DNA from: an uncultured Alphaproteobacteria bacterium
GTDB taxonomy: Bacteria > Pseudomonadota > Alphaproteobacteria > Micavibrionales > UBA1664
NCBI GenBank assembly: GCA_943789475.1
Contig: CALSUG010000006.1
Location: 62,001-126,000 of the forward strand
Length of the DNA stretch: 64,000 nt
Direction: 5' to 3'
Below, piece by piece: positions 15,660-63,737 of this stretch; the first letter of the stretch is position 1, and each line of letters begins with the position of its first letter. Position numbers and translations under genes: made by a program. The notes beneath the pieces are model-generated. The model did not search any database. It saw only the letters and a list, made by a program, of their open reading frames with translations, and had not been told where the DNA came from.

Positions 15660-16355
15660 ATGACAGACCAAAAACCACCATTCTATGGTGATCCAAATAT
15701 GCTTATGCCCCTTAAGGAATCTGCAGTTTTATCAATCCGCACAAGAAACGCTCTCATATCAGACAAAAAGATATATATTGCAGACATATTGCAATATCCC
15801 CAAAAATGGCTTTTGCGAACTCCCAATTTTGGACCTAAAGGCTTAAACGAAGTCCTTATGATGCTGCAAGACATATCCGATGAGACAGCGACCTATGAAT
15901 TACCTAAAGCGATTGATTTCAACATACTTTTTGATGGCAACAAAGATAAAATCGAACAACATTACGGTTTAGGCAACTATCAACCAAAACCCATGCATGG
16001 TTTTACCGCAAGCGATTTTAAGGTTGCGAGCTTTGAAGGCGATGTAAGTGAGGAATCACTGGCTGTCACCTTTGATCTCCCCCCTATGCTTGGCCAAGCT
16101 ATTAAAGATGATGATATGCCATTTGCATCGCCAAAAATTGATATCACAATAAACGCCAATCCCGATGATATAACAGTGCAAGCAACAAAAAATACCGAAG
16201 CATTTCTAGAAGATCTTTCCGCAAGCTATGCAGAAACAAACGATGACGCCACACAACTCACAATCTATTTTGAAATGGCACATAATGGAACAAAAATAGA
16301 TGCAAAAGCTCTTACCGAAAAAATGGCAGCATCATTTAAAAAATTAGCACCATAA
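15660..16355 (+). CDS. stand-alone protein with RNA polymerase alpha C-terminal-like domain
   Basis: 231 residues. Residues about 18-72 closely resemble the alpha-subunit C-terminal domain (alpha-CTD). LSIRTRNAL aligns with the LTVRSANCL strand, IYIADILQ with IGDLVQ, and RTPNFGPKGLNEV with the second helix-hairpin-helix (LLRTPNFGRKSLNEI in rpoA). Matches to E. coli DNA/UP-element residues are R27 (R265), N30 (N268), G58 (G296) and K60 (K298); S299 is Gly61. The remaining 150 acidic residues match nothing I know and have no membrane span. The rpoA N-terminal assembly domain is absent, so this is not rpoA itself. The start is supported by the two purine-rich sites AGGAGA and AGGAGAAAA just upstream. 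Monocistronic; divergent from mdh. Function is inferred only as DNA or transcription-complex binding. Confidence 0.8.
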   Translation: MTDQKPPFYGDPNMLMPLKESAVLSIRTRNALISDKKIYIADILQYPQKWLLRTPNFGPKGLNEVLMMLQDISDETATYELPKAIDFNILFDGNKDKIEQHYGLGNYQPKPMHGFTASDFKVASFEGDVSEESLAVTFDLPPMLGQAIKDDDMPFASPKIDITINANPDDITVQATKNTEAFLEDLSASYAETNDDATQLTIYFEMAHNGTKIDAKALTEKMAASFKKLAP

Positions 16356-16517: not shown

Positions 16518-17951
16518 TTAATGGATAGGATTTGTAAGATCCAAACCTTCCGTACGTAGAATTTCTTGAATACCGTCATATATTTTCGTTAGGTTGGCCT
16601 CGTTATCGGCTTCCATACGAATGGTTAGCGCATTTTGTGTGTTCGATGCACGGATCAACCACCACCCATAATCATACTCAACACGCACACCATCAATATC
16701 AATCACCTTTGCCCCTGACGCATTTTCACGCGCAAGATTGGCAAGTTTATCAACCGTTTCGAATTTAGTTTCTTCATCCACTTCCAAACGAACCTCTGGT
16801 GTTGAACATAATGTTGGCAGATCAGCCGTAAGTGATGACATTGTACCTTCCGCCGCATTGAATACATTCAACATACGCACCGCACAATATAATCCATCAT
16901 CAAATCCATACCATGAATCAGAAAAGAAGATATGGCCACTCAATTCACCAGAAAGCGGGGATTTTTCTTCAGCCATTTTGGTTTTAATCAGGCTATGGCC
17001 CGTCTTCCACATGATTGGGTTACCACCCATTTTTTCAATGGCTTGATACATTAATGGTGAACATTTCACATCACCAACAATTGTCGCACCCGGATGACGT
17101 TTCAAAACATCTTGCGCATATAAAATCAACATTGTGTCACAACGAATGACCTCACCCTTTTCATTCACAATACCAATACGATCACCATCACCATCAAAAG
17201 CTATCCCGATATCACAGTTCTTTTCCGCGACCAATTTTTGAAGATCAACGAGGTTTTTATCAACCGTTGGATCGGGGTGATGATTTGGAAAATCACCGTC
17301 GACCTCATCATAAATAACAAAATGTTCCCCTGGTAACTTGGCAACAAGATCCTTTAGTACAGCACCTGCCGCACCATTACCAGCATCCCATGCAACACGT
17401 AATTCTTTAAAAGAACTTCCTACGAAATCTTTGTGCAAACGATTCACGTACTCTTCACGAATATCCAATGAATCTTCGGCACCATAATCACCTGTCGACC
17501 AATCCGCCTCACGTGCAATACGGCCAATTTCTTGAATCATTCCGCCATAAACAGATTTGTTCTGAAGAACCATTTTAAAGCCATTATATTCCGCAGGGTT
17601 ATGTGACCCTGTAATCATAATCGCCCCATCAAATTGACGATCCTTTGCCGCAAAATATGTCATTGGCGTTGGACCAAGTGGAAGACGTGTTACATCAATA
17701 CCAACGGTACGTAACCCCTGCACAACCGCAGCGGATAATGCAGGTGAGCTGTGCCGTCCATCAAAACCAACAACAACTGTTTTACCACCTGCACGACGTA
17801 CCAATGTTCCAAATGATGCACCAATTGCCCATGCGTCAGCATCCGTTACATTATCACCAACGATTCCACGAATATCATATTCACGCAAAATCAGTGGATC
17901 AAAATTATGTGGTTTGCGTGTTGTTTCTTGTTCAGTTTCAAGCGGCTGCAT
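16518..17951 (-). CDS. phosphomannomutase/phosphoglucomutase (AlgC/ManB family)
   Basis: Alpha-D-phosphohexomutase that moves phosphate between C6 and C1 of glucose or mannose, feeding GalU and GDP-mannose synthesis. It has the REYDIRGI N-terminus, the phosphoserine loop MITGSHNPAEYNG, the Mg site IAFDGDGDRIG, the sugar-specificity loop SGELSGHIFF and the C-terminal phosphate-binding RASNTQN. 477 residues, complete. The start ATG 17951 overlaps the galU stop by 14 bp and has an AAGGA site, so the pair is co-translated. The pairing with galU suggests glucose-1-phosphate for UDP-glucose. Confidence 0.93.
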   Translation of the reverse strand: MQPLETEQETTRKPHNFDPLILREYDIRGIVGDNVTDADAWAIGASFGTLVRRAGGKTVVVGFDGRHSSPALSAAVVQGLRTVGIDVTRLPLGPTPMTYFAAKDRQFDGAIMITGSHNPAEYNGFKMVLQNKSVYGGMIQEIGRIAREADWSTGDYGAEDSLDIREEYVNRLHKDFVGSSFKELRVAWDAGNGAAGAVLKDLVAKLPGEHFVIYDEVDGDFPNHHPDPTVDKNLVDLQKLVAEKNCDIGIAFDGDGDRIGIVNEKGEVIRCDTMLILYAQDVLKRHPGATIVGDVKCSPLMYQAIEKMGGNPIMWKTGHSLIKTKMAEEKSPLSGELSGHIFFSDSWYGFDDGLYCAVRMLNVFNAAEGTMSSLTADLPTLCSTPEVRLEVDEETKFETVDKLANLARENASGAKVIDIDGVRVEYDYGWWLIRASNTQNALTIRMEADNEANLTKIYDGIQEILRTEGLDLTNPIH

Positions 17952-18846
17952 TTTTACGATCCTTGTTTATATATTTTTTTAATATTTCATGTGTTGCATC
18001 ACCAAATTCTGGGTCAGCGAGTGCAAAGGCGATATTCGCCTCAATAAATCCAAGGTGATGACCACAGTCATATGTTTCACCCTTTAACTTTACTGATGAA
18101 AACGATTGCGTTTCCATTAATTTTTCCATGGCGTCAGTCAATTGAATTTCACCACCAGCACCAATTTTACGTTCATCCAAAATATCAAATATTTCAGGTT
18201 GCAAGATATAACGTCCAAGAATGTGCAGGTTTGATGGTGCATCTTCTGGTTTCGGCTTTTCAACCATCGCATTAATCGGCGACACGTCGACACCCTCATT
18301 TTCAACATCCAAGATTCCGTATTTGTATGTCAGGTCACGTGGCACAGGTGAACTTGCAATCACATTTCCACCATGTTGATTATACGCATCAACCATTTGT
18401 GCCATGCATCCTTTTTCGCCCAATGTCATCACGTCGACCAAAAACACAGCAAACGGTTCATCACCAACAAGATTTTTTGCACACCACACAGCATGACCAA
18501 GGCCAAGCGCACGTTGCTGCATCGTAATTTGAACTTTTCCAGATGGAATATCACTGTGTGATAACTTTTCTAACAACGCTAATTTATCACGGCGCTCCAA
18601 CTCTTCACGCAATTCTGGTTGAATTTCAAAATGCTGTGTAATTAATGATTTTCCACGCCCAGAGACAAAAATAAACTCTTCAATTCCTGCTTCCTGCGCT
18701 TCCTCTACCGCGCGTTGTATCAACGGTCGATCAACAAGGGGGAGCATTTCCTTTGGCATCACCTTTGTCGCTGGCAAAAAACGCGTTCCCAACCCCGCAA
18801 CGGGAAATACAGCTTTGCGCACTGGCCTTTTCATATCTTTATTCAT
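17938..18846 (-). CDS. galU: UTP-glucose-1-phosphate uridylyltransferase
   Basis: Makes UDP-glucose from UTP and glucose-1-phosphate. The signature AVFPVAGLGTRFLPATKVMPKEMLPLVDRP opens the protein, and FIFVSGRGK and the FAVFLVDVM nucleotide-binding region follow. I start it at ATG 18846 (MNKDMKRPVRK) with a GTGGAGG element slightly far upstream; ATG 18834 is also possible, while the frame extends to a TTG at 18882. About 302 residues, normal for the family. It sits between the RNase A-like gene and the phosphohexomutase in one minus-strand operon. Confidence 0.95.
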   Translation of the reverse strand: MNKDMKRPVRKAVFPVAGLGTRFLPATKVMPKEMLPLVDRPLIQRAVEEAQEAGIEEFIFVSGRGKSLITQHFEIQPELREELERRDKLALLEKLSHSDIPSGKVQITMQQRALGLGHAVWCAKNLVGDEPFAVFLVDVMTLGEKGCMAQMVDAYNQHGGNVIASSPVPRDLTYKYGILDVENEGVDVSPINAMVEKPKPEDAPSNLHILGRYILQPEIFDILDERKIGAGGEIQLTDAMEKLMETQSFSSVKLKGETYDCGHHLGFIEANIAFALADPEFGDATHEILKKYINKDRKNAAA

Positions 18847-18885: not shown

Positions 18886-19374
18886 TTATTTCAATTCTGG
18901 GTAAGCCGTTAAAATATAAAAACCCGTTGCATAGTCATTATCACGAATAAGGACAACACGCGCCTGATTACCTGATCGTGGCGCGCCCCATCCACGTTTT
19001 AGGACACGTCCAACATGCGCATCCATTCGATTATAAAATGCCTTTTTATGTGATCGTTCAGTATTCAACCATGCTTGTACTAAATCACCACGTTTAATCA
19101 AAACAGATCGAACTGCACTTTCCGCCTCAGCCATATTATTAAATGTTGATGCCGTTGATACATCCTCACGCTTCAAACGTTGGCGCAGATATTGATCAGA
19201 TTTTCCAACATGCTTTTCAATGGCATGTCCCTCGACATCCAATCGTTCAAGAAAACCAACACCATACAATGATGATGGCACCTGTACACGGTAATCCTGC
19301 AGCACAAAAACAATGACGACACAAAAAACGAGCCATAACAGCCCGTTTTTAGATTTTAATAACTTATGTTTCAT
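18886..19374 (-). CDS. membrane-anchored RNase A-like (CdiA-CT type) protein
   Basis: 162 residues: short basic N-terminus, one membrane span or uncleaved signal (about 12-25), then a domain matching the bacterial RNase A-fold toxin family known from contact-dependent inhibition tips. Recognised parts are EGHAIEKHVGKSD, ASTF near residue 80, GRVLKRG, and the end FYILTAYPE. In the Yersinia kristensenii CdiA toxin the reported active-site residues are His, Arg 11 residues later, and Thr-x-Tyr near the C-terminus. Here H55, R66, T156 and Y158 keep exactly these spacings. There is no CdiA-like scaffold, so delivery or a housekeeping periplasmic RNase role is open. The start follows the stop of the upstream gene by six bases with no own ribosome site, indicating translational coupling. 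galU follows. Confidence 0.75.
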   Translation of the reverse strand: MKHKLLKSKNGLLWLVFCVVIVFVLQDYRVQVPSSLYGVGFLERLDVEGHAIEKHVGKSDQYLRQRLKREDVSTASTFNNMAEAESAVRSVLIKRGDLVQAWLNTERSHKKAFYNRMDAHVGRVLKRGWGAPRSGNQARVVLIRDNDYATGFYILTAYPELK

Positions 19375-19995: not shown

Positions 19996-20871
19996 TTAAG
20001 CCGCAATTGCTTCTTTCACCGCTTCACCAAGACCTGCTGGTGATTCTGTGACAACAAATCCAGCTGAACGCATTGCATCCATTTTCGCTGGCGCAGTATC
20101 ATCACCACCAGAAATAATCGCACCCGCATGGCCCATACGTTTACCCGGAGGCGCCGTAACACCCGCGATAAAGCCCGCAATTGGTTTTGGATTTTTCAAT
20201 GATTTATAATATTCCGCAGCTTCGATCTCGGCCGCACCACCAATTTCACCAATCATAATGATTGATTCCGTTTCATCATCCGCCATGAACATATCGATAC
20301 AATCGATAAAGTTTGTCCCGTTTACAGGGTCACCACCGATACCGATACATGTTGATTGACCAAGACCAGCCGCCGTTGTTTGTGCAACCGCCTCATAAGT
20401 CAAAGTACCAGAACGCGATACGATACCAACGGATCCACGTTTGTGAATGTGACCAGGCATAATACCGATTTTACATTCGTCTGGCGTAATAACACCTGGG
20501 CAATTTGGCCCGATAAGGCGTGAATTTGAACCAGTCAACGCGCGTTTCACACGAACCATATCCATTACAGGAATACCCTCGGTAATACATACGATCAATT
20601 CTAATTCTGCATCGATTGCTTCCAAAATTGCATCCGCCGCAAACGGTGGTGGTACGTAAATCACAGATGCGTTTGCATCCGTTGCTTCGCGCGCATCATA
20701 AACCGTGTCATACACTGGCAAGTTAAGGTGTTTTGAACCACCCTTACCCGGTGTAACACCGCCAACCATGTTTGTCCCATATGCAATGGCTTGCTCACTA
20801 TGGAACGTACCTTGTGCGCCTGTAAAACCTTGGCAAATTAATTTTGTATCTTTATTTACGAGTACTGACAT
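19996..20871 (-). CDS. sucD: succinyl-CoA synthetase alpha subunit
   Basis: With SucC converts succinyl-CoA to succinate with NTP formation in the TCA cycle. The CoA-binding N-terminal domain ([26 protein letters not shown]), IGPNCPGVI and the phospho-His loop [11 protein letters not shown] are present. 291 residues, complete. The start has a strong GAGAGGA site and lies 25 bp after sucC. A terminator follows. Confidence 0.97.
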
Positions 20872-20895
20872 TTTTTATTCCTCTCTCGTTTCCTA

Positions 20896-22098
20896 TTAAG
20901 CCGCCATGGCTTGTTTTGTTGCATCAACGATTTTTTGTGCGGCATCGCCCAAATTATCGGCCGCGATGATCGGAAGGCCAGAGTTATTCAAAAGATCTTT
21001 CCCCTTCTCAACATTTGTTCCTTCCAAACGCACAACCAATGGCACATTCAATGAAATTTCCTTTGCTGCGGCAATAACACCCTCGGCAATAACGTCACAT
21101 TTCATGATACCGCCAAAGATATTTACAAGCACACCCTGAACCTGTGGGTCAGATAAAATAATTTTGAATGCCGCGGTCACGCGCTCTGTCGTTGCTCCAC
21201 CACCAACATCAAGGAAGTTCGCAGGCTCACCACCATACAATTTAATGATATCCATTGTCGACATCGCCAAACCAGCGCCATTAACCATACAGCCGATATT
21301 TCCATCAAGGCGGACATAGTTCAATTCCCAATCTAACGCTTCTTTTTCTTGCGCGTCCTCTTCGGTTTCATCACGCATCGCAAAAATTTCTTTTTGACGG
21401 TATAGCGCGTTCGGGTCGAAATTCATTTTTGCATCCAATGCCATAACTTCGTTATTATCCGTCACGATCAATGGGTTAATTTCAACGATAGATGCATCCA
21501 GTTCAACAGAACATTTATATAATGCCATGAAAAATTTAACCGCTGATTTCATTGTGTCGCCAGTCAGACCCAGCGCAAATGCCAAACGACGTGCGTGAAA
21601 ACCGCTCATGCCGCTTGCAGGATCAATTGAAACATGTGTAATTTTTTCTGGTGTTTCTTCCGCGACTTCTTCGATATCCATTCCACCTTCGGTTGATACC
21701 ATGAATGTCACGCGTGATGATGCACGATCCAAAACAACAGAACAGTAATATTCTTTTGCAATATCAACACCGTCCGTTACATACAAACGTTGGACTTCTT
21801 TACCTTCTTCGCCAGTTTGTTTTGTCACCAAAACTTCACCCATCATTGCCGTTGCCGCATCGCGCACATCGTCAACCGTTTTACAAAGGCGAACACCGCC
21901 TTTGCCTTCTGGATTATTTTTAAAGTGACCTGCGCCACGCCCACCGGCGTGAATTTGTGCCTTAACAACAAACAAATCGCTGTCCATTGATTCGGCCGCT
22001 TTTACCGCTTCATCAACACTCATCGCAGGGATACCCTTTGGTACTGCAACGCCATATTTCTCTAATAAACCTTTGGCTTGATATTCATGGATATTCAT
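20896..22098 (-). CDS. sucC: succinyl-CoA synthetase beta subunit
   Basis: ADP- or GDP-forming beta subunit: an ATP-grasp N-terminal domain ([34 protein letters not shown]) and a C-terminal flavodoxin-like ligase domain ([26 protein letters not shown]). I start at ATG 22098, with GAAGGA ahead and matching the conserved family N-terminus, rather than the open-frame end at 22140. About 400 residues, as in other alphaproteobacteria. First gene of sucCD; divergent from the unknown basic protein gene. Confidence 0.97.
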
Positions 22099-22247
22099 TA
22101 TTTTCGAATCCTTCACATTAATTTTCGACAGAAACAGCATAACATGACCGTGACCACGTGCAAGGCCACCCCATCATGCATACATATTTATTTCGAATTT
22201 TATACATTAGTAATAGTTTAAAAAGGTTTAATGCATACAATCAGGAC

Positions 22248-27764: not shown

Positions 27765-28262
27765 TTACTCGAACTTTAAATCTTCAATAGCATTTGACAA
27801 ACGCGGCGGTAATTCCAAGTTTAAATCTTCACGTGCCATAATAATTGGAATTGTTTTATTAAATTCTTTGATAAAATTTTCTTGTAATGGTTTTCGATCA
27901 AGCGTTATTTTATTAATCACAACACGTCCTCCCCCCGTATTAAAGAAACATTCCATCAATTGAGATTCTCGAGAACCATAGGAATTGGTTGTTAAATAAC
28001 CAATTTGCGCTGAATTTTGTTTTTCACCTGTCGTTAATATTTTTAAATTTGTCGGATATTGAACATAACGTTCTAAAAAAGTTTTACACAAACCATATCG
28101 CCATGTGCCTGTTCGTTGCGATGTCGACGCGGTTGAAATAATAATAACAACAATAATGACCGCAAAAACACCACCAATAAGAACAAAGTCCTGATATTTT
28201 TTTAATACTGCTGTAAACTGGGTATCTTTATCATTCGGCTCACCAAAAATTTTAGGTAACAT
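27765..28262 (-). CDS. single-span membrane protein next to the IcmB-like ATPase
   Basis: 165 residues with one strong membrane span (about 27-45, rich in Val and Ile) after a short cytosolic N-terminus. The remainder would be periplasmic, with two Cys (GLCKTF, MECFFN) that could pair. The single-span topology recalls DotI/IcmL-type proteins of type IVB secretion, but no sequence motif confirms it. It follows the IcmB/DotO-like gene by 11 bp and is clearly in its operon, so I infer a role in the same membrane complex. Confidence 0.75.
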   Translation of the reverse strand: MLPKIFGEPNDKDTQFTAVLKKYQDFVLIGGVFAVIIVVIIISTASTSQRTGTWRYGLCKTFLERYVQYPTNLKILTTGEKQNSAQIGYLTTNSYGSRESQLMECFFNTGGGRVVINKITLDRKPLQENFIKEFNKTIPIIMAREDLNLELPPRLSNAIEDLKFE

Positions 28263-28273
28263 AAAATAATTTC

Positions 28274-31200
28274 CTACTCTATTTCTTCACCCATTAATTG
28301 ACGTTGGCGTTCCGCCTCATAGCGTTCTTCACTCGCTCTTACCAATTCATTTACAATTTCCTCAATAATTGCCGATGTTGCCGCGCTTGCTGTTTCGCCT
28401 TCTTCTGACATCGCAAAAACACGACGCTTAATTTCTGATCTTGCACTTCCCCCTGGAAAAGCTGCTGACAACATTTGACGCGCACGTGATGCTCCTAACT
28501 TTTCATACAAACGGTTGCGAATAGCAACATCTTCCGCTGAAGTAGATAATGCCCACAATTCAATTGGACCAAGCGTATTGATCAAATGTTGTTCGTATCG
28601 ACCATCACTTGTTCCCAAGACTAACAATGCTGGCGCCCCCGATGAACGAGGCCCCGTCAAACGATATCGAATAACATTACGTGCCGTGTTCGACAAACCA
28701 AAACGTTCTTGTGTATTATCAACAACACGATCCGAAATCGCCGTACCAAGCACCCAAACTCCCGTAGCAAGGTCAATCATATCATCACTAAAATCTTCCA
28801 ATAACTGTGATGTTAAAACAATTTGGACTCCACGCTTACGCCCCTCACGCACATCACGAATCAATTGTCCACGGACAGAATATGATTTACTTGTTCTATG
28901 AAATTCATCGTAACAAAGACGTTTAGGTGTTTCAGCAATATCCTGCAGTCGACGCTCGTGATACGGTTTATATTTATCTGGCATTTGATCAACGGCCTCT
29001 TTGGACATCCACCAACTACGCACCAGAGCGTGACGTGCCAACATGTACATGATAGATGTTTGGCGATCTGCCGTCTCATCCCCTTGAGGACACACATCCA
29101 TTAAGTCCAGAGAGCAAATTCGTGCATCCGTAATCTCAAATTTTGTTACTGATGACAAGATAGGAAATTCACGAATTGCCGATGTAATCATTCGCTCAAA
29201 TGCACTAATCACACTTTCTGCACTTCCACCAATTTGCGCCTCATCCAACAAGGCACGAATTTGAGGACGACGTGCCGCCGTAATAGCATCACCAAGAACC
29301 GGAACAGCATAACGTTGCGCCAAGTTTGCATAATGATATTGTTCAATATCATAAAATTTATCTACAACATCCCACCAATATGGATCTTCGGGCAAATGAA
29401 TATTATGCGCCTTTAAGGCATCATCAATTTCAACGTCTAAACGTGGAAGATATGGGCGCGCCTCTGCATTCGCCTCGACATCATTTCGCCATCTAAACAT
29501 TTCATCAATAACCAAACCTGATAATTGTTGTATCCCATCATAAGGACGGTCTGCACCAGGAGGAGTACATAACAACGTCAACAACTCAACAAGGTAAGAC
29601 CGTTCATCAATTAATGGTTCGCGCATACCAAGTTGTGTATCAAATGGATTAATCGCATATTCCGGTGTCATTTGCAGGCGGTAATAAGCCGCTTCATGTT
29701 GTCGCTCCTGTGGCAAAGATTCCTTAATTAAGGAAATCAATCCAGACGATGAAGGACCAATATCAATAACAGCAACATATGGCAGCTTACTGTTACCTGG
29801 CGCCAAAATTGTCGCAAGATTAAGCGTGTTTAACAAAACAGATTTACCAGCCCCTGGTTGTGCAAAAATAAGGTCAAACCATGTTGTTGTTAAATTGGTT
29901 CCTGTTTGATATGGCCACACCTTACCATCAGGTGTTCGCAACAATAACGCCCCTTTATCAAATGGTGATGATGGCCTTTGCCACGGTAATAGCTTCATAA
30001 CTTCGTGCATTGGAGCTACCGCTGTAGGAGCCGTTGAAGCGCATGCTATTCCCATGGCTGACGACATAACACAATCAAGAGGATCACCAACAACATTAGA
30101 AACCTGACAATATCCCCAGCTCTCTGCAGCCTGCATTAAAATCGAAATACGATCTTCTAACAAACCACGTTTTCCCTCTGGCGCCCATGTAGCCAATGAT
30201 ATACGTAACTTTACGACAGGCTCACTCCTTGATAACGCTTTCAAAGATTCCAATGATTTTTTAATCGTTTTGTTTACAGGATTTGTGATAGCCAAAAATG
30301 TTGCAATAGATGACTTAGCTGTTGTTGCTTCTACTCCACCAGATTCAATTAAAAAGGAAATACGATACGGAATATTGGCCTCGAATAACCTATTCAACAA
30401 CATTGGAAATGGTGACGGATCACTCGGCGCCAATGTCATGTCAATACCTCCCCACAAAAGGCTTCCAATTTGAACCATGCGGTTATTCAAAATTTTACCA
30501 TGAGCCGTGGTTAATTGTTGTCGAAGTGGTGGCCATAAAATATCTGAATAATCTATTTTTGATTCAGGCACACGTACTGGAATATTATCACCTGGCAATA
30601 CAGGACGCCATTGATCATTAGCCATGTCCGGAAACAAATTGTTACGTACAGCAGCCATTGCACTGTGTCCCGTCATCGTATCTGCACGAATACCCAACTC
30701 GTTCAATGCAGATTCAATTCCCATCACATATGATTTATGTCGAGCTCTCAATGGATCTAGTGCGGCTAGCGGATCTTGCGCACTAGATGCAGGAATTCGC
30801 TCTTGTTTTTGACGTTCTTCTGCTGCACGTTTTAACTCCGTTTCATTGAGAATACTAGGACGTGTCCATAAAACATAATAGCATTCTTCATGGATCATAT
30901 AATGCGACAAGTGACGTGCACGTTCATCCAACACGTCTTCAATTTCAAGACCAATATTACGGGCAGCAACCTTTGACGGATAGATTTCTTTTTCTGTTGT
31001 CGCACGAGATTTAGATGGATTGCGTGTAAAAAACACTTGGAGCGCATGACCTGGACGATCAAATCGAGATCCTAGCTTTACCGTCGCTGCCTCAAGAATA
31101 TGATTATATTCTTCTTGACCAATAATTTGACGAGAACCATCAACTTTCATATAGCTAATTAACGATCCATCTTCGGCTACCATTGTGAATTCATCATCTG

Positions 31201-31282
31201 CCGTTTCCAGGCGAATAAAAGATTCAATGGGCTGTTTTGCCAAAGTTACAAAAGGTGCAAAAAATTTACCGAGTCCGCTCAT
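28274..31282 (-). CDS. icmB: IcmB/DotO-like type IVB secretion ATPase
   Basis: 1,002-residue ATPase of the VirB4/TraU/IcmB class. Walker A FAQPGAGKSVLLNTLN lies near residue 470, followed by AVIDIGPSSSGLISLIKE, a hallmark of IcmB/DotO. YAINPFDTQLG and the Walker B-like RLCYDEFHRTSK also fit, as do DVREGRKRGVQIVLTSQ and WVLGTAISD. The N-terminal half carries the variable VirB4-like region. No other dot/icm gene apart from the small membrane protein downstream is visible. This is therefore a scattered or partial system, as in some alphaproteobacteria. It may power conjugation, effector export or an unknown process. Confidence 0.88.
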   Translation of the reverse strand: MSGLGKFFAPFVTLAKQPIESFIRLETADDEFTMVAEDGSLISYMKVDGSRQIIGQEEYNHILEAATVKLGSRFDRPGHALQVFFTRNPSKSRATTEKEIYPSKVAARNIGLEIEDVLDERARHLSHYMIHEECYYVLWTRPSILNETELKRAAEERQKQERIPASSAQDPLAALDPLRARHKSYVMGIESALNELGIRADTMTGHSAMAAVRNNLFPDMANDQWRPVLPGDNIPVRVPESKIDYSDILWPPLRQQLTTAHGKILNNRMVQIGSLLWGGIDMTLAPSDPSPFPMLLNRLFEANIPYRISFLIESGGVEATTAKSSIATFLAITNPVNKTIKKSLESLKALSRSEPVVKLRISLATWAPEGKRGLLEDRISILMQAAESWGYCQVSNVVGDPLDCVMSSAMGIACASTAPTAVAPMHEVMKLLPWQRPSSPFDKGALLLRTPDGKVWPYQTGTNLTTTWFDLIFAQPGAGKSVLLNTLNLATILAPGNSKLPYVAVIDIGPSSSGLISLIKESLPQERQHEAAYYRLQMTPEYAINPFDTQLGMREPLIDERSYLVELLTLLCTPPGADRPYDGIQQLSGLVIDEMFRWRNDVEANAEARPYLPRLDVEIDDALKAHNIHLPEDPYWWDVVDKFYDIEQYHYANLAQRYAVPVLGDAITAARRPQIRALLDEAQIGGSAESVISAFERMITSAIREFPILSSVTKFEITDARICSLDLMDVCPQGDETADRQTSIMYMLARHALVRSWWMSKEAVDQMPDKYKPYHERRLQDIAETPKRLCYDEFHRTSKSYSVRGQLIRDVREGRKRGVQIVLTSQLLEDFSDDMIDLATGVWVLGTAISDRVVDNTQERFGLSNTARNVIRYRLTGPRSSGAPALLVLGTSDGRYEQHLINTLGPIELWALSTSAEDVAIRNRLYEKLGASRARQMLSAAFPGGSARSEIKRRVFAMSEEGETASAATSAIIEEIVNELVRASEERYEAERQRQLMGEEIE

Positions 31283-62687: not shown

Positions 62688-63737
62688 GGCTTTGTTGCAC
62701 AAAACGGATTGTGACCGGACTTCCCCTTTCCCCGGACAGACCTATCCTACGGGCACCGTGACGGGTATGCCGAGAGAGGTGTAGCGGTTGAGCACCGCGA
62801 CGCGGATCTGGATTTCGGCGACCTGCCGGTCGAAGTCTCTCGACATCAGGGATTGGCCGAGAAGCTTGATACAGTTCATTTTGCTCTCGACGCGGCTTCG
62901 GCGGTGGTATCCGCTCCATTTTCGCCAGATGGCGCGGCCGAGGTATCGCGATGCATTGACTGCCTCGTTCCGGGCGACAGCTCCAGCGCTTGAGGGTTTC
63001 CACGGCTTGGCGTTCTTGCGCGGTGGGATGACTGCATGCGCGCGACGGGCAGCAATCGCGTCGTGGCATTTTCGAGTGTCATAGGCCCCGTCAGCCGTGA
63101 CGCTGCCAATGGCTTGGTCTGGCGGGATTTGCTCGAGCAATTCTGGCAACATGGGCGCGTCGCCGACATTGCTGGTGGTGACCTCGACCGCCCGCACTTC
63201 CAGTGTTTCTTCGTCGATCCCTATGTGTATCTTGCGCCATATCCGGCGTTTCGGGCCGCCATGCTTGCGGGCGTTCCACTCGCCTTCACCTTCCGACTTG
63301 ATGCCGGTACTGTCGATGAGCAGGCTCAGCGGGCCGGTGCCGCAACGAAAGGGCAGGTTCACGTTCAGTGTCTTCTGACGGCGGCACAAGGTGCTGAAAT
63401 CCGGCACCGCCCAGTTCAACCCGACCAACCGCAGCAAGCTCTCGACAAAACCCGTGGTCTGCCGGAGCGGCATGCCGAAAAGCACCTTCAGGGTTAGGCA
63501 GGTCTGGATCGCGGCATCGCTGAATTGTTGCTGCCGCCCACGTTTGCCCGTTGGAGGTGGCGTCCAGTCCATCTCCGGATCAAACCAGATCGAAAGCGAT
63601 CCGCGTTGCTTCAGTGCTGTGTTGTACGAAGGCCAGTTCCTGGTCTTGTACTTCGTAGGGGCCCAACTGCTCATGCCACACAGCTATCATGCTGGATTCA
63701 TACAGTGAATCCCCAGCGTAATTTGTGCAACAAAGCC
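62688..63737. mobile_element. complete IS5-family insertion sequence, 1,050 bp
   Basis: Ends carry a perfect 16-bp inverted repeat GGCTTTGTTGCACAAA (62688-62703 and the reverse complement at 63722-63737) and are flanked by the 9-bp repeat ATGCATCTG. One transposase gene on the minus strand fills most of the element. Size, ends and duplication match IS5-family elements of the IS903/IS427-like type. The intact structure implies a recent insertion. Confidence 0.92.
62742..63674 (-). CDS. IS5-family DDE transposase
   Basis: 310 residues. Catalytic residues visible: Asp in LLIDSTGIK, Asp in SVTADGAYDTR and Glu in RRSRVESKMNC, the IS5 signature (Tyr/Arg ... Glu). The family start WPSYNTALKQRGSLSIWFD and FSTLCRRQKTL are also present. 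It appears intact and could be active. Lies wholly inside the 1,050-bp element in reverse orientation to the gene it interrupts. Confidence 0.93.
   Translation of the reverse strand: MSSWAPTKYKTRNWPSYNTALKQRGSLSIWFDPEMDWTPPPTGKRGRQQQFSDAAIQTCLTLKVLFGMPLRQTTGFVESLLRLVGLNWAVPDFSTLCRRQKTLNVNLPFRCGTGPLSLLIDSTGIKSEGEGEWNARKHGGPKRRIWRKIHIGIDEETLEVRAVEVTTSNVGDAPMLPELLEQIPPDQAIGSVTADGAYDTRKCHDAIAARRAHAVIPPRKNAKPWKPSSAGAVARNEAVNASRYLGRAIWRKWSGYHRRSRVESKMNCIKLLGQSLMSRDFDRQVAEIQIRVAVLNRYTSLGIPVTVPVG

What the first reader, a model, noticed from the sequence alone, without database searches (positions are those of the whole stretch)
18886..19374. Membrane-anchored RNase A-like (CdiA-CT type) protein without a delivery scaffold
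H55, R66, T156 and Y158 keep the same spacing (11 residues, and Thr-x-Tyr) as the reported active site of the Yersinia kristensenii CdiA RNase A-fold toxin, and the flanking sequence matches the family. Instead of a CdiA scaffold there is only a single N-terminal membrane anchor, and the gene is in an operon with galU. It may be an exported RNase, an orphan toxin, or a domesticated RNase.
Basis: partly seen in the sequence, partly recalled or inferred. Interest (0 to 1): 0.65.

Follow-up and report, generated by a model that had tools for sequence, protein, structure and literature searches.

The report
Membrane-anchored bacterial RNase A lacking immunity gene
A Micavibrio-like bacterium carries a small, apparently intact RNase A-type RNA-cutting enzyme that seems tethered outside its inner membrane; nearly all relatives of this enzyme are toxins with a protective 'immunity' gene alongside, but this lineage has none, so it probably uses the enzyme as an ordinary exported RNase and not as a weapon.

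Summary
Confirmed: the ORF at 18886-19374 (minus strand, 162 aa) is a genuine bacterial RNase A-like protein (PF18431, E 7e-27; predicted fold 1.2 Å from the Y. kristensenii CdiA-CT toxin 5E3E). H55, R66, T156 and Y158 are all kept. It has one N-terminal hydrophobic helix, then the RNase domain, and no toxin scaffold. (1) The galU neighbour is not conserved. Two other genomes of the genus carry the gene (one is Micavibrio sp. UBA1664), and the shared neighbour is sucCD. (2) Small exported RNase A proteins are not rare: lipoprotein, signal-peptide and TM-anchored forms occur in several phyla, and NCBIfam already has a lipoprotein model. (3) Nearly all relatives, scaffolded or exported, have a CdiI-type immunity gene directly downstream or fused. 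The window genus has none detected, although the same search finds one beside RNase A in all three other RNase A-bearing genomes of the order. With purifying selection on the catalytic domain and no RNase T2 in the genus, the best reading is a former toxin domain now used as a periplasm-facing RNase without immunity. Activity, location and substrate are untested. New variant of a known kind.

The parts
18886..19374 (-). 162-aa N-terminally anchored protein with a C-terminal RNase A-like (PF18431) domain
   Evidence: Pfam E 7.4e-27; one hit in the whole genome; orthologues in two other genomes of the genus
18895..19230 (-). RNase A-like domain, residues 49-160, with H55, R66, T156 and Y158
   Evidence: Pfam boundaries; fold 5E3E, rmsd 1.2 Å over 111 columns; residue conservation; dN/dS ~0.1
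19297..19347 (-). Predicted transmembrane / signal-anchor helix, residues 10-26 (Lys-rich N-terminus in, domain out)
   Evidence: Sequence; helix 10-26 in the model; hydrophobic segment also in L038/L039
19381..19875 (-). Upstream 164-aa gene of unknown family, 6 nt before the RNase gene; not a conserved partner
   Evidence: No Pfam/NCBIfam match; found in no other genome of the order; does not match the CdiI profiles
19996..22140 (-). sucD (19996-20871) and sucC (20896-22140): the neighbours conserved with the RNase gene across the genus
   Evidence: Same order in G001 (L018) and G003 (L019)
17938..18846 (-). galU (ATG at about 18846): downstream neighbour in this genome only
   Evidence: ORF list; replaced by DUF4174/sodC/sucA in G001 and by DUF3429 in G003

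Best explanation
The gene encodes an enzymatically intact RNase A-superfamily ribonuclease of the bacterial CdiA-CT/Ykris branch. A single uncleaved N-terminal helix holds it in the inner membrane with the catalytic domain in the periplasm. It probably began as a toxin domain acquired horizontally in this genus, lost or never carried its CdiI immunity partner, and is now kept as a resident exported RNase. There it would cut RNA outside the cytoplasm without a metal ion, using H55, R66, T156 and Y158 as in the Ykris toxin. The likely use is salvage or clearance of RNA entering from lysed or preyed-upon neighbours, or defence against incoming RNA. Shown: family, predicted fold, residue set, conservation in the genus, purifying selection, no detectable immunity gene. 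Inferred: topology, RNase activity, the salvage role, loss of immunity from a toxin ancestor.
For: PF18431 match and fold. Catalytic residues all kept; R66 and T156 nearly invariant in 65 relatives. Domain dN/dS about 0.1 (win/G003 dN 0.19, dS 1.8) against about 0.6 for the N-terminus, so the enzyme part is under constraint. Orthologues in G001 and G003 at the same sucCD locus, all with a hydrophobic N-terminus. No conserved gene accompanies it except sucCD. The cognate immunity family CdiI_2 (best PDB match 5E3E_A) lies beside 51 of 53 scaffolded and, counting the Moorena/Symploca/Maritalea cases, 22 of 27 exported relatives. It is found beside RNase A in all three other RNase A-bearing genomes of the order (G031, G085, G125) but nowhere in G000, G001 or G003. 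RNase T2, the family of the periplasmic RNase I, is in 1 of 142 genomes of the order and none of this family.
Against: No activity or localisation data. The N-terminal helix is short (about 17 residues); cleavage or retention could not be predicted. Immunity could be non-homologous, or a CdiI relative too diverged to detect: two exported relatives (L050, L076) also score poorly yet have small downstream ORFs. RNase A was not found in other genera of the family, which also lack RNase T2, so an exported RNase of either family is dispensable for close relatives. The family tree does not resolve the genus's position, so toxin ancestry is not shown.
Confidence: 0.55

Rival explanations
1. An exported antagonistic effector: like its exported relatives, the RNase is displayed on or released from the envelope and delivered into competitors or prey, where it cleaves tRNA/rRNA. 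Self-protection comes from an unrecognised immunity protein or simply from export.
For: Most exported relatives (Aquimarina and Cyclobacteriaceae lipoproteins, Alphaproteobacteria, Acidobacteriota, Chloroflexota, cyanobacteria) carry an adjacent CdiI-like gene, so exported small RNase A proteins are usually toxins. Another genome of the same order (G085, Micavibrio sp. UBA1672) has signal-peptide RNase A genes in arrays with many CdiI_2 genes. The secreted RNase A-fold protein Ribocin is a virulence factor (PMC13189344).
Against: No CdiI-type gene in the genus; neighbours differ in all three genomes, so no conserved alternative partner; the helix looks like an uncleaved anchor; no delivery domain.
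Confidence: 0.25
2. A cytoplasmic-membrane RNase with its domain on the cytoplasmic side, acting in the cell's own RNA turnover.
For: The N-terminal helix alone does not prove topology.
Against: Lys-rich N-terminus before the helix predicts N-in/C-out (positive-inside rule); catalytic residues are intact and nothing detectable would restrain a nonspecific RNase in the cytoplasm.
Confidence: 0.08
3. An orphan toxin remnant (decaying or displaced cassette) without function.
For: Patchy distribution: 6 of 142 genomes in the order, 4 of 54 genera; faster evolution than sucD.
Against: Three intact orthologues, all active-site residues kept, dN/dS about 0.1 in the domain.
Confidence: 0.07

Closest known systems
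CdiA-CT Ykris RNase A toxin (PDB 5E3E; PF18431)
   Same: Same domain family, predicted fold within 1.2 Å, same four active-site residues and spacing
   Different: No CdiA scaffold, no CdiI partner, N-terminal anchor in place of a delivery stalk; conserved neighbours are TCA-cycle genes
NCBIfam NF041883 RNase A-like domain-containing lipoprotein, and the exported small RNase A proteins of Aquimarina, Acidobacteriota, Alphaproteobacteria and others
   Same: N-terminal export/anchor segment followed by the RNase A domain; the window protein matches NF041883 over the domain (60.6 bits)
   Different: Far below that model's cut-off (200 bits); no lipobox evident; most such exported proteins have a CdiI-like gene next door, this one does not
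Ribocin / RbcN (P. aeruginosa; PMC13189344)
   Same: Small exported RNase A-fold protein, no scaffold; the paper puts H60, K75, T159, Y161 in the corresponding active site
   Different: Signal peptide; 15% identity to CdiA-CT Ykris and no annotated domain according to the paper; acts on eukaryotic ribosomes; not compared here by sequence
Periplasmic RNase I (RNase T2 family, PF00445)
   Same: Proposed role: general RNase outside the cytoplasm
   Different: Unrelated family; not found in this genus

Membership tests
Bacterial RNase A domain (PF18431) | Full-length match to the curated model above cut-off | tested here: met
   94.9 bits vs 27, model positions 1-113 of 113
Bacterial RNase A domain (PF18431) | Active-site set H, R (+11), T-x-Y at the C-terminus | tested here: met
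   H55, R66, T156, Y158 align with 5E3E (residue numbers of Ykris from PMC9086364)
Bacterial RNase A domain (PF18431) | RNase A-like two-sheet fold | tested here: met
   AlphaFold2 model, domain pLDDT about 91-98; Foldseek 5e3e_B/D E 2e-11/5e-11, TM (target) 0.92-0.94. Active-site geometry not measured
Bacterial RNase A domain (PF18431) | Metal-independent RNase activity | not testable with these tools
   Needs an assay
CDI / polymorphic toxin system | Toxin domain at the C-terminus of a delivery scaffold | tested here: not met
   162-aa protein with 48 residues before the domain; TPS exoproteins exist elsewhere in the genome, but no second RNase A domain
CDI / polymorphic toxin system | Adjacent cognate immunity gene | tested here: not met
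   No CdiI_2 or CdiI-like gene at the locus or in the genome, with positive controls in the same search. A non-homologous immunity protein is not excluded
RNase A-like lipoprotein (NF041883) | Score above the 200-bit cut-off and a lipobox | tested here: not met
   60.6 bits; no lipobox by eye
Exported, membrane-anchored protein | N-terminal signal or anchor sequence | tested here: inconclusive
   Hydrophobic helix 10-26 after lysines; no signal-peptide predictor or topology assay

The most novel reading that the evidence does not exclude
A toxin-type RNase A domain has been domesticated in a Micavibrio-like lineage as an immunity-free, periplasm-facing housekeeping or feeding RNase, a bacterial counterpart of secreted vertebrate RNase A used for RNA digestion and not for warfare.
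Probability: 0.4. Interest if true: 0.55.

Novelty: new variant of a known kind. Interest (0 to 1): 0.42.

Why it matters
[quoted passage not shown] A lineage that keeps the intact catalytic domain, under purifying selection, at a fixed chromosomal site without a detectable immunity gene gives a directly testable case of a toxin domain changing jobs. The survey also shows that small exported RNase A proteins are widespread and usually paired with CdiI-like immunity genes (apparently fused in Maritalea), which is useful for re-reading such annotations in other genomes.

Tried and rejected
galU linkage as functional clue: rejected, not conserved. Upstream 164-aa ORF as immunity protein: no family, absent from sister genomes, wrong side, no CdiI match. 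First impression that exported small RNase A proteins generally lack immunity genes: rejected when an iterated CdiI profile found the partner beside most of them. Single-sequence AlphaFold model: useless (pLDDT 43), replaced by the alignment-based one. Family tree: only partly resolved; the nearest rows to the window clade are Bacteroidota lipoproteins, with low support. Batot 2017 and Cuthbert 2017 not held, so Ykris details come from a review. Papers on predation plus ribonuclease in Micavibrio: nothing useful.

Full report
What is there. The ORF 18886-19374 is on the minus strand, 162 aa. Residues 49-159 match PF18431 (Bacterial CdiA-CT RNAse A domain) end to end, E 7.4e-27. The only significant PDB sequence match is 5E3E_B, the Y. 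kristensenii CdiA-CT (E 4.6e-10). An AlphaFold2 model from 65 aligned sequences of the window and fetched loci has domain pLDDT about 91-98, and Foldseek places it on 5E3E at E 2e-11, rmsd 1.2 Å, with nothing else significant. Across 65 relatives R66 is 64/65, T156 65/65, and Y158 is Y or F in 64; H50 and H55 were part of the search pattern, so their invariance says nothing.

Architecture. The protein starts with a Lys-rich stretch and one hydrophobic helix (about residues 10-26), then about 20 residues, then the domain. I could not run a signal-peptide predictor; by eye there is no A-x-A cleavage site or lipobox, so a signal anchor with the domain in the periplasm is the likeliest topology. 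This is inference.

Organism and orthologues. The genome is 1.97 Mb in 9 contigs. PF18431 occurs in three of five genomes of the genus examined (the two without it are 66% and 72% complete) and was not found in other genera of the family. It is found in 6 of 142 genomes of the order and 8 of 385 drawn from the class. G001 is Micavibrio sp. UBA1664 and G003 an alphaproteobacterial MAG (matching contig lengths). NCBI files Micavibrio under Bdellovibrionota; from my own knowledge Micavibrio is alphaproteobacterial, and described Micavibrio strains are epibiotic predators. Whether this genus preys is not known.

Neighbourhood. In all three genomes the gene follows sucCD on the same strand: immediately (5 nt) in G003, after DUF4174 and DUF2061 genes in G001, after a 164-aa orphan in the window genome. 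Downstream are galU (window), DUF4174-sodC-sucA (G001) and DUF3429 (G003). Hence galU is incidental, and no gene other than sucCD travels with the RNase. The 164-aa upstream gene is found nowhere else in the order.

Selection. Between the window gene and its G003 orthologue the domain has dN 0.19, dS 1.8; the N-terminus dN 0.49, dS 0.84; sucD dN 0.04, dS 1.15. dS is high, so the ratios are rough, but the catalytic domain is clearly constrained while the anchor drifts.

Relatives. A scan of the GTDB species collection returned 80 loci. They include long scaffolded toxins, a ~280-aa effector class in Burkholderiales, Rhizobiales and others, and small exported proteins: lipoproteins in Aquimarina/Cyclobacteriaceae, signal-peptide forms in Moorena, Symploca and Maritalea, anchored forms in Alphaproteobacteria, Acidobacteriota and Chloroflexota (export classes assigned by eye). 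NCBIfam already holds an RNase A-like lipoprotein model. So exported RNase A without a scaffold is not itself new. On the tree the exported/scaffolded label needs about 6 changes, fewer than every shuffle; the window clade (100/99 support) falls near the Bacteroidota lipoproteins, but that grouping is weak.

Immunity test. CdiI_2 (PF18593) proteins from G085 have the Ykris CdiI (5E3E_A) as best PDB match (E 1e-4). Starting from these, an iterated profile found a CdiI-like gene close beside 51/53 scaffolded and 15/27 exported loci. Inspection then showed a related 95-101-aa gene downstream in Moorena/Symploca and an apparently fused C-terminal domain in Maritalea; adding these to the profile makes it 22/27 (this last step is partly circular because those sequences were added to the model). 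Of the remaining five, one (L060) has no sequence downstream, two (L050, L076) have unassigned small ORFs, and two are the window's own orthologues. Whole-genome searches with PF18593 and with my own CdiI alignment found immunity genes beside RNase A in G031, G085 and G125, and nothing in G000, G001, G003 or the rest of the family. A secreted relative in G518 is likewise followed by what reads as a permease gene, so the genus may not be the only exception.

Function. A catalytically complete RNase without a detectable antidote is tolerable if it never folds in the cytoplasm, which fits an anchored periplasmic enzyme. RNase T2, the family of the periplasmic RNase I, is not found in this genus or in nearly the whole order, so RNase A could supply that activity; but sister genera lack both, so it is not essential. 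I favour a domesticated exported RNase (0.55), with an exported effector (0.25) as main rival. Enzymatic activity, topology and ecological role remain untested.

Noticed in passing
L103:4800-5696 and L117:4824-5687 (Maritalea): A secreted RNase A domain appears fused at its C-terminus to a CdiI-like immunity domain in one ORF: toxin and antidote in a single polypeptide.
   Followed up: partly
L020, L021, L022 (G085, Micavibrio sp. UBA1672): Several signal-peptide RNase A genes sit in arrays with a dozen or more CdiI_2-like immunity matches, one ORF holding several immunity repeats in tandem.
   Followed up: partly
window 28274-31282 and 27765-28262, minus strand: A 1002-aa protein that looks to me like an IcmB/DotO-type secretion ATPase (recollection of the family, not shown), with a 165-aa single-TM protein next to it; neither has a Pfam, NCBIfam or PDB sequence match.
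   Followed up: partly
window 15660-16355, plus strand: 231-aa protein with an RNA polymerase alpha C-terminal-domain match (PF03118, E 1.1e-7) outside an rpoA gene.
   Followed up: partly
G000:C6:262006-267665 (outside the window): Two large two-partner-secretion (TPS domain) exoproteins in the same genome, about 180 kb from the RNase gene; neither carries an RNase A domain.
   Followed up: no
window 62742-63674, minus strand: ORF that reads as an IS5-like transposase near the window edge.
   Followed up: no
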